This document shows positions 9,788 through 12,608 of a DNA stretch of 64,000 nucleotides, in pieces (position 1 is the first letter of the stretch; each line of letters opens with the position of its first letter). Where the stretch lies: assembly GCA_027604705.1 (NCBI GenBank), contig JADHYV010000021.1, positions 124,001-188,000 of the forward strand, read 5' to 3'. Source of the stretch: Allomyces arbusculus (lineage: Eukaryota > Blastocladiomycota > Blastocladiomycetes > Blastocladiales > Blastocladiaceae). The notes beneath the pieces are model-generated. The model had not been told where the DNA came from and searched no databases. It worked only from the letters and a program-made list of their open reading frames with translations. A program made the position numbers and the translations under genes.

Positions 9788-12608
9788 TCACGTACCCGAC
9801 AAGTGCGTGAACCCGTCCTCCTGGACCTCAAACGGATTCACCTTGGCCTTGACCGGATACTCCAAGTCAATCCCGCCGCGCACGGCCGGCGGACACCACA
9901 GCGCATAGTCGACCGCATGGTTGATGCCCACGTCCGGGTTATTCGCCGACACGGCGTGCACGTCGATCCCGTGGCCCGAGTAAGTCACTGGGTGCCGGCC
10001 ATACTGGTCGAGCAACAAGTCGCGCAGTGGCATCGGGTCCTTGTCACGCGCGTCTGTACTCAGAAACTCGTCGCACGCGCGCATATTGTCAATCGGCTTG
10101 CTCCACTCGCCGCGCAAAATGCGCATCATTTGCGTGTACTCGTCGGTCACGGCGAGCCCGCGGTGCTGGTCGCGCGCACTCGGGATCGCGTTCAGGTTCA
10201 AGTCCCCGACCATCAGGATCGGTTCCGTCGCGCGCTTATCGGCCGTCTGCTGCTTGACAAACGCGCGCAGTTGCGCAAGCTGCGTCTGCCGGACCACGGC
10301 CTCGGGCGAGGCCAAGGTGAAATCTGGACTGCCCGACTTCTGCAGGTTGGTCGTGACCACGTGCAGGTGGCACTGGTCGGTCACGGCAATCCGCGCGTAG
10401 AGCGCGCCTTTCGCGGCAAAACGGCAGTTGTAGACGGCACGCCGGAACGTGAGCCGCCCCTGCCGCGTGATCGGGAATCGCGACAGGATCACGAGCCCGC
10501 CGTCGGTGCACCCATTCAGCAGACCCTTGGACGGCGACACGAGCGAGTCGGTGAACCCCTTAATCTTGGCGAGCTGCAGCAGCCGCTGCACACGCCCGGA
10601 ACCGTACGAGTACATTTCCTGCAGGCACACGATGTCGTACTGCGGCAGGACGTACTCGATGAAGTGGTGCAGTCGCGCGTTCTTGTGGTCCGACAGGTTG
10701 TTGCGCAGACCGGGCACGCGCATGAACATGCTGTAGCTCAGCGCGCGCACCGTGCGTGTCTGCGTCGGCGCCGGTGAGGGTGTCGGCGTGTACCCCGGGC
10801 GCATCGGCGCGGATGCCGCGGTCGGTGCCGGCGAGCTCGGCTTGACTTCGGTCGGCGACGGAATCCGCGTCGCGGCGGTCCCCGCGCCGGCCTTGATCGC
10901 CGCGTACCCCGTCGCATGCGGTGGGGCGTAGGTCGGCGTCGGCGCGACCACGACGGGCGCGACCGTGACGGCCGTGGCCGGCAACGGCACCGTGTACGTA
11001 AACGGTGCCGCAGCATTCTGTACAATCTCAGCCACCACGGGCTTGCGCACGTCCGGAATCGACGCGACGAGACCCGAATCCATGACGTCGTTGGCCTCGC
11101 CCTTGGGTCGCAGCGGGTTCATTTGTGGCTCGCTGTCGGACGACGACGATGCTTGGCTGCTGGCCGTGCCCGTGCTCGCGAGTGCCGGGACCTGGCGTGT
11201 CGCCGTCGTCGAGCTCGGTGGTGGGCCCGAGGCGGCTGACGACGCCGCGGCCATCTTGTCAGAACTGCGGCGCTGCGAGTAAGTGCGCAGATTCAAGTTG
11301 ATCGTGGGCGCGAGATTACTCTGTTCGCCGTGGTGCCGCGCCGTGCGGCCGAGCGACGCGGTCGTGGTCGTATCGTTGCCGAGTCTCAACTGCTGCATGC
11401 GAATCATGGCCTCGTCGCAGTTGTTGAGCAGGAACGGGTGCTCGAGCGCCTGCTGCGCGGTCATGCGCACGGTCGGGTCGACGAGCAGCAGCCGTTGCAC
11501 GAAGTTCTTGGCCTCGAACGAGATATTGTCCCAGTAGGGCGAGTCAAACTCGTAGTGGCCCGACATGATCTGCTGAAAGAGCGCGTGGTTGTTTTCCTCG
11601 TAAAACGGGGGGTATCCGCAGAGCAAGATGTAGGTGATCACGCCAATCGACCACATGTCGACTTGCTTTTGGTAGCCTTCGCGGCGCAGGACCTCGGGTG
11701 CTATGAGGTGGGTTCAGCGCGGGTGGTCAGTCGAGTCAGGTCGTCATCGCGTGGAGAGAGGAATCCCGAGCGAGGAATACCGCTTACCGACGTAACCGGG
11801 TGTCCCGCACGCAGTGCGCATCAGCTGCACGTCGTCAAAGATCTTGGACAGGCCAAAGTCGCTGATCATGATGCGCGAGCCAGGGGTCGCGTCGTAGAAG
11901 AGGAGGTTCTCGGGCTATGCGGCGGCGCACAGCATCAGTCACTTTGACCGAATGCGCGCGAAGAGCGTCAAACACGACGCGGACCTTCAAGTCGCGGTGG
12001 CAAATGTTGAGCCGGTGCAAGTACTGCACGCCGCGCAGGATCTCGTAGACGATCTTGGCCGCGTCGGACTCGGTGTAGTGGCCGCGCTCGACAATGCGGT
12101 CAAACAGCTCGCCGCCCGTGACACTACGCGAGCCGGCGATCAAAGTAAGCATGCGGAGCTCCGACGCAACGACGAGTCAAACGCGAGCGGTACGTACAGT
12201 TCCATGACCAAAAAGATCTTGAGCGGCGACTCGTACATTTCGAAGAGCCGAATGATGTTGCGGTGCTTGACGCGTTTGAGAATCTCCACCTCCGACTGGA
12301 TCATCGACTCCTTGCCACGGCACTTGGCCTTGTCGATGATCTTGACGGCGAAGCGCACGCCCGTGGCGCGTTCGGTCGCGCGGCGCACCTCGGAAAAGGC
12401 TCCACTAGTAGAAGTGAGTGGTGAGCACCGACTGGTCGCGAATGTTGCGCGGAGGATGGCGGAAATAGAGTACGTACGTGCCAATCACGTCACCAATCTC
12501 AAACTTGGCGTAGAGCATCTCAATGGTCAGCGACATGCCGAGGTCGAGCACGTTGGGCGCGGGCGACGTGGCGCCACTCGGGCTCGCCGGTGGGACGACG
12601 GGCGGCAT
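9788..12608 (-). CDS. CaMK-type protein kinase fused to a sphingomyelinase-like EEP phosphodiesterase
   Basis: Five exons on the minus strand (12608-12478, 12404-12198, 12123-11985, 11914-11788, 11700-9788) join in phase to 838 aa. Kinase domain about residues 36-300: Gly loop GTGAFSEV (43-50), VAIK-type Lys65 (FAVKIID), HRDLKPEN with Asp157, DFG Asp178, CGTPGYVAPE. The best fit is the CaMK group (GGELFDRI, GYPPFYEENN). A low-complexity Ala/Pro/Ser linker (about 300-520) leads to an endonuclease/exonuclease/phosphatase fold: RVPGLRNNLSDHKNARL, YDIVCLQEMY with the metal-binding Glu, VGDLNLNAIP with Asp/Asn, and a closing GINHAVDYALWCPP. That layout resembles neutral sphingomyelinases, but the usual terminal SDH is not evident. 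The last exon contains the end of the kinase, linker and EEP domain without a stop, so the fusion is in the genome rather than from joining exons. Substrate of either half is unknown. Confidence 0.88.

What the first reader, a model, noticed from the sequence alone, without database searches (positions are those of the whole stretch)
9788..12608. One polypeptide joins a CaMK-type kinase to a sphingomyelinase-like phosphodiesterase
Sequence shows the last exon (11700-9788) running from the end of the kinase catalytic core through a linker and an EEP domain with no stop and no splice site needed. Both halves keep key residues (Lys65, Asp157, Asp178 in the kinase; the metal Glu and the DLN motif in the EEP part). 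Both families are well known apart, but I know of no described protein with this order. It could place phosphorylation and a lipid or nucleic-acid phosphodiesterase in one regulated enzyme.
Basis: partly seen in the sequence, partly recalled or inferred. Interest (0 to 1): 0.72.

Follow-up and report, generated by a model that had tools for sequence, protein, structure and literature searches.

The report
Fungal kinase fused to sphingomyelinase-like domain
A zoospore-type fungus appears to carry one gene that joins a calcium/calmodulin-type protein kinase to a domain resembling a lipid-cutting enzyme, but that second domain lacks two standard active-site residues, so it may bind or regulate rather than cut.

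Summary
I read six exons on the minus strand (12608-9657) encoding 857 aa. The N-terminal half is a CaMK1-type kinase (152 of 261 residues identical to human CaMK1D) with its catalytic motifs. A 222-aa Ala/Pro/Ser/Thr-rich linker reads as coding in the same frame. The C-terminal half is an EEP domain nearest to bacterial and neutral sphingomyelinases. It keeps the metal Glu, DLN, DY and SDH motifs. However, the Asn and His of the catalytic site in bacterial sphingomyelinase, and in three related EEP genes of this genome, are Ser525 and Asn653 here. So "both halves keep key residues" is only half right. Two of these relatives are unfused by domain scan. Two rhodopsin genes, one with a guanylyl cyclase domain, support Blastocladiomycota. 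Orthologues and transcripts could not be tested. I read it as a new pairing of known domains: probably a working kinase with an altered or weakened phosphodiesterase domain.

The parts
12478..12608 (-). Exon 1: start codon at 12608, N-terminal tail and start of the kinase domain
   Evidence: first Met of the frame
12198..12404 (-). Exon 2: glycine-rich loop GTGAFSEV (completed across the splice), Lys65, helix C
11985..12123 (-). Exon 3: kinase, through HRDLK (Asp157)
11788..11914 (-). Exon 4: kinase, DFG (Asp178), activation loop RTACGTPGYV
9796..11700 (-). Exon 5 (1905 bases): rest of the kinase (from APE), linker, most of the EEP domain; its last base is the first base of the Asp837 codon
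10757..11422 (-). Linker aa 295-516, 118 of 222 residues A/P/S/T; coding signature (measured on codons 295-522) continuous with both domains
9796..10756 (-). EEP domain from aa 517, the part within exon 5: Ser525 (usual Asn), Glu563, Asn653 (usual His), Asp701/Asn703, Asp799
9722..9795 (-).
9657..9721 (-). Exon 6: completes Asp837, carries His838 (SDH) and the stop codon
   Evidence: matches LSDHMGV (C17, C4) and LSDHDGL (C61) in the genome's relatives

Best explanation
One six-exon gene encodes an 857-aa fusion of a CaMK1-type protein kinase, a low-complexity linker and a sphingomyelinase-like EEP domain. Shown by sequence: the continuous frame, both domains, the complete kinase motifs, and an EEP domain with most but not all catalytic residues. 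Inferred: the kinase is active and is switched on by phosphorylation of its activation-loop Thr by an upstream kinase. The EEP domain, having lost the Asn/His pair, most likely binds a membrane lipid or phospho-ligand, or works weakly or with altered chemistry. It would thereby place or regulate the kinase rather than act as an ordinary sphingomyelinase.
For: Gene model and open frame; two Pfam domains above cut-off in one product; 152 of 261 residues identical to CaMK1D over aa 34-294, with GTGAFSEV, Lys65, HRD, DFG and RTACGTPGYVAPE present. EEP best matches are bacterial sphingomyelinase C (phmmer E 1.7e-9); a three-row profile also finds SMPD3 (5uvg, E 2.9e-9). Coding signature of the linker. 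C17 and C4 keep the motif-I Asn and motif-III His, and C61 does too (His, Asn by reading). PMC9710629 (passages seen): N16 and N197 hydrogen-bond the metal waters in B. cereus sphingomyelinase, central metal residues show over 99% conservation in 276 putative enzymes, and its reference list holds a title naming His151 and His296 as the acid-base catalytic residues.
Against: No transcript or protein evidence. Glu563, Asp701, Asn703, Asp799 and Asp837-His838 are kept and the domain has no stop or frameshift, which could mean that it is still an enzyme, perhaps on another substrate. No structure of usable quality (mean pLDDT 38.2). No disorder or calmodulin-binding predictor was run. One genome only. 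Alternative starts or ends inside the linker cannot be excluded.
Confidence: 0.5

Rival explanations
1. A true bifunctional enzyme: the kinase, activated by calcium signalling, regulates in cis a working phosphodiesterase that cuts a sphingolipid or another phosphodiester.
For: Metal Glu563, Asp701/Asn703, Asp799 and the SDH motif are all present once exon 6 is added. R-x-x-S motifs lie in the linker (Ser343, Ser348, Ser483) and at the EEP border (Ser523). Frame and splice sites are intact.
Against: The His151-equivalent is Asn653 and the Asn16-equivalent is Ser525, unlike the bacterial enzymes printed and the related genes C17, C4 and C61. The EEP half is 33% and 31% identical to C17 and C4, which are 56% identical to each other, so it has diverged more.
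Confidence: 0.3
2. Two proteins are made from this locus, a kinase and an EEP protein, through alternative transcript ends or an internal promoter in the long linker.
For: The linker is long and low-complexity and holds six in-frame Met codons; unfused relatives of this EEP domain exist elsewhere in the genome.
Against: No in-frame stop codon in the 1905 bases of exon 5; codon and GC3 signature continuous through the linker.
Confidence: 0.12
3. The fusion is an assembly or annotation artefact.
For: Only one assembly was available; a run of ten N lies at 14899-14908, about 2.3 kb upstream of the start codon.
Against: The junction lies inside one uninterrupted 1905-base exon on a 356,545-base contig. 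Near-identical kinase segments were found only at this place and a 35-base exon-5 pattern occurs once in the genome.
Confidence: 0.04

Closest known systems
Calcium/calmodulin-dependent protein kinase type 1 (CaMK1D, CaMK1)
   Same: Kinase domain with 152 of 261 residues identical to CaMK1D, catalytic motifs, activation-loop context STACGTPGYVAPE/RTACGTPGYVAPE
   Different: No recognisable basic amphipathic calmodulin-binding helix after the kinase by eye; a linker and an EEP domain follow instead
Bacterial sphingomyelinase C / neutral sphingomyelinase SMPD3 (EEP superfamily)
   Same: Nearest solved relatives by sequence; metal Glu, D-x-N and SDH motifs kept
   Different: Asn16- and His151-equivalents replaced by Ser525 and Asn653; fused behind a kinase
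Sphingomyelinase-type EEP proteins of the same genome (contigs C17, C4, C61)
   Same: Same EEP subfamily; C17 and C4 are 33% and 31% identical to the fusion's EEP half
   Different: C17 and C4 show only the EEP domain in their open frames; C4 has a hydrophobic stretch before the domain (by eye); the usual Asn and His are kept
Rhodopsin-guanylyl cyclase fusion of Blastocladiomycota (BeGC1)
   Same: A lineage-linked fusion of two common signalling domains (PMC4046227, passages seen)
   Different: Unrelated domains; BeGC1 has RACE, localisation and inhibitor data, this gene has none

Membership tests
CaMK1-type protein kinase | Kinase domain with glycine loop, catalytic Lys, HRD, DFG, APE | tested here: met
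   Pkinase 263.6 bits; GTGAFSEV from aa 43, Lys65, HRD 155-157, DFG 178-180, APE 202-204
CaMK1-type protein kinase | Closest similarity to CaMK1 among solved kinases | tested here: met
   CaMK1D E 3.8e-103, ahead of CaMK1, CaMK1G, DCLK1, CaMK4 and CaMK2 (best 60 of 2729 matches shown)
CaMK1-type protein kinase | Autoinhibitory and calmodulin-binding segment after the kinase domain | tested here: inconclusive
   The alignment to CaMK1D ends at aa 294. The tail NLAPTINLNLRTYSQRRSSDK lines up by eye with NLVPTLKRGAQSRNGRFKNAVSKV of the C117 kinase but lacks its hydrophobic positions. No calmodulin-binding predictor was run
EEP (Exo_endo_phos) superfamily | Pfam PF03372 above gathering score | tested here: met
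   40.8 bits in the full protein, 43.9 for the domain alone, cut-off 24.5
Neutral/bacterial sphingomyelinase | Metal-ligand Glu (E53 in the B. cereus enzyme), D-x-N, terminal DH (D295-H296) | tested here: met
   Glu563, Asp701-Leu-Asn703, Asp837-His838; the last only with exon 6
Neutral/bacterial sphingomyelinase | Motif-I Asn (N16) that holds metal waters | tested here: not met
   Ser525 in the column where C17 and C4 and the B. cereus enzyme have Asn
Neutral/bacterial sphingomyelinase | Catalytic His of motif III (H151) | tested here: not met
   Asn653 in TTNLQ against NTHLQ (C17, C4), NLHLQ (C61) and GTHLQ (B. cereus)
Neutral/bacterial sphingomyelinase | Hydrolysis of sphingomyelin | not testable with these tools
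   needs an enzyme assay

The most novel reading that the evidence does not exclude
A lineage-specific signalling protein in zoosporic fungi in which a degenerate sphingomyelinase domain has been turned into a lipid-sensing or membrane-placing module of a CaMK1-type kinase, linking calcium signalling to sphingolipids in one chain. An intron that splits the catalytic Asp codon could add a splicing switch.
Probability: 0.25. Interest if true: 0.65.

Novelty: new variant of a known kind. Interest (0 to 1): 0.45.

Why it matters
Calcium signalling and sphingolipid turnover are usually linked by separate proteins (general knowledge). A single chain that joins a CaMK1-type kinase to a sphingomyelinase-like domain would be a natural test case for that link. 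It would also add another domain fusion in the lineage that has the rhodopsin-guanylyl cyclase. The altered active site makes a clear, testable question: has a lipid enzyme become a regulatory domain of a kinase?

Tried and rejected
Relatives elsewhere: the EEP half found no confirmed relative in viral contigs (alone; as a three-row alignment), in genome contigs (alignment) or in phages (alone). These are collections of viral, prokaryotic and phage sequence, and the first three scans rest on a few short peptide patterns, so they say nothing about other fungi. The genome has no listed relatives, so orthologues in Allomyces, Catenaria, Blastocladiella or chytrids were not tested.

Structure: a single-sequence model of aa 517-836 was poor (mean pLDDT 38.2, pTM 0.30), so no fold search was made with it. 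I did not add the paralogues to the job because they came through tools that the job's rule does not name.

Literature: 10 searches. In the listed titles and starts of abstracts I saw no kinase-sphingomyelinase fusion. One search found no paper; two searches listed 15 of 517 and 10 of 76. Subscription papers and protein databases were not searched.

Considered and set aside: an assembly artefact; a stop between the domains (none in frame); and an intron within the linker (no match to the donor patterns first tried; one looser GTACG site, not followed up).

Full report
Gene model. The minus strand from 12608 to 9657 reads as six exons: 12608-12478, 12404-12198, 12123-11985, 11914-11788, 11700-9796 and 9721-9657 (letters). 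From these coordinates the introns are 73, 74, 70, 87 and 74 bases long, all GT-AG. The product has 857 residues. The exons were placed by reading and by continuity of the protein, not by a gene predictor. Splicing the intron out gives LSDHYGVEVFL instead, which matches LSDHMGV in C17 and C4 and LSDHDGL in C61. The intron splits the codon of Asp837, so an unspliced message would end just before the motif; whether that is used is unknown.

Is it one polypeptide? Exon 5 is open throughout its 1905 bases. The linker, scored as codons 295-522, has GC3 0.83, against 0.86 in the kinase and 0.85 in the EEP part; in the flanks no frame position exceeds 0.71 (5' side) or 0.54 (3' side). A codon table from the two domains gives +8.3 bits for the linker in frame and -15.6 to -210.3 bits in the other five frames. 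An open frame of this length arose in 6% of 2000 Markov sequences of the same make-up, so openness alone is weak evidence and the codon signature is the stronger one. A 35-base pattern in exon 5 occurs once in the genome. No transcript was available.

Kinase half. Pfam Pkinase covers aa 37-292 at 263.6 bits. The best solved match is human CaMK1D, with 152 of 261 residues identical over aa 34-294. The glycine loop (from aa 43), Lys65, HRD (Asp157), DFG (Asp178) and RTACGTPGYVAPE (from aa 192) are present. The Thr that CaMKK phosphorylates in CaMK1 (recalled) has its counterpart in this loop. The CaMK1D alignment stops at aa 294. Another CaMK-like kinase of the genome, on contig C117 (51% identical over aa 193-300), has a basic stretch after the kinase that looks like a calmodulin-binding helix; the fusion has only a polar counterpart there (by eye). 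Calcium/calmodulin control is therefore open. Among the matches listed in the genome search (19 at E up to 1e-20; 115 of 206 candidates scored), no other place reached the 58% identity that this kinase has to CaMK1D: the highest, apart from the gene itself, was 48% (51%).

EEP half. Exo_endo_phos matches at 40.8 bits in the whole protein. Sequence search of solved structures gives bacterial sphingomyelinase C first (E 1.7e-9), then other bacterial sphingomyelinases, and SMPD3 only at E 0.59. With a three-row alignment SMPD3 rises to E 2.9e-9. A protein search of the genome with the EEP half lists, besides the gene itself, three places: C17, C4 and C61. C17 and C4 align over the whole domain. 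C61 was aligned for its last exon and its earlier exons were read by eye; the end of a second, similar copy beside it was not modelled. C17 and C4 show no second Pfam domain in their open frames, and no kinase match is listed at either place (whose list was cut and which scored 124 of 355 candidates). I did not scan the C61 gene for further domains.

Active site. Kept: Glu563, Asp701 and Asn703 (DLN), Asp799 (VDY), and Ser836-Asp837-His838. Not kept: the motif-I Asn is Ser525, and the motif-III His is Asn653 (TTNLQ against NTHLQ in C17 and C4, NLHLQ in C61, and GTHLQ in the B. cereus enzyme). From PMC9710629 I saw passages only. They state that N16 and N197 hydrogen-bond the metal-coordinating waters and that central metal residues show over 99% conservation in 276 putative bacterial enzymes. 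The paper's reference list carries a title naming His151 and His296 as the acid-base catalytic residues; that paper itself was not seen. So an ordinary sphingomyelinase mechanism is unlikely to be at full strength here. Against this reading, most of the metal site is intact and the frame is clean, so catalysis on another substrate stays possible. The EEP half is also the more diverged one: 33% and 31% identical to C17 and C4, which are 56% identical to each other.

Organism. The genome has 25.9 Mb in 197 contigs. Two microbial-rhodopsin loci were found; one has a guanylyl cyclase domain in the same frame and the other was detected as rhodopsin only. The species was not identified. PMC13161914 (passages seen) reports SMPD3-like proteins across fungi, expanded in Allomyces macrogynus, and Isc1-type proteins absent from Blastocladiomycota. 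This fits an SMPD3-like origin of the EEP half. The word fusion occurs 0 times in its main text and 'kinase domain' 0 times.

Mechanism. Most likely (0.5): an active CaMK1-type kinase carrying an altered sphingomyelinase-like domain that binds or regulates. Next (0.3): a bifunctional enzyme, perhaps with a changed substrate. Two separate products (0.12) and an artefact (0.04) are less likely. Steps shown: frame, domains, residues. Steps inferred: kinase activity, loss or change of phosphodiesterase activity, membrane or ligand binding.

Verdict. The order CaMK1 kinase, linker, EEP is new to me and I did not see it in what the 10 literature searches listed; these cover open-licence papers only. 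It is a new combination of known domains, not a new kind of system.

Noticed in passing
window 8430-9110 (+): A convergent open frame next to the fusion has weak EF-hand-like matches (EF-hand_5 18.9 bits, below its cut-off of 25.9); a possible calcium-binding neighbour of a CaMK-type gene.
   Followed up: partly
L034 (G000:C7:515350-516000) and L035 (G000:C15:369892-370536): Two microbial-rhodopsin genes; L034 also shows a guanylyl cyclase domain in the same frame, as in the Blastocladiomycota photoreceptor fusion.
   Followed up: partly
L024 2299-3400 and about 4480-4600 (contig C61): A sphingomyelinase-type EEP gene with the end of a second, similar copy just upstream, suggesting a tandem duplication.
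   Followed up: no
L023 4203-6044 (contig C4): An unfused EEP relative with a hydrophobic stretch before the domain (by eye), possibly a membrane anchor.
   Followed up: no
window 14899-14908: A run of ten N behind a long poly-T tract, inside a stretch that looks like a branched-chain aminotransferase gene (recalled resemblance, no family search).
   Followed up: no
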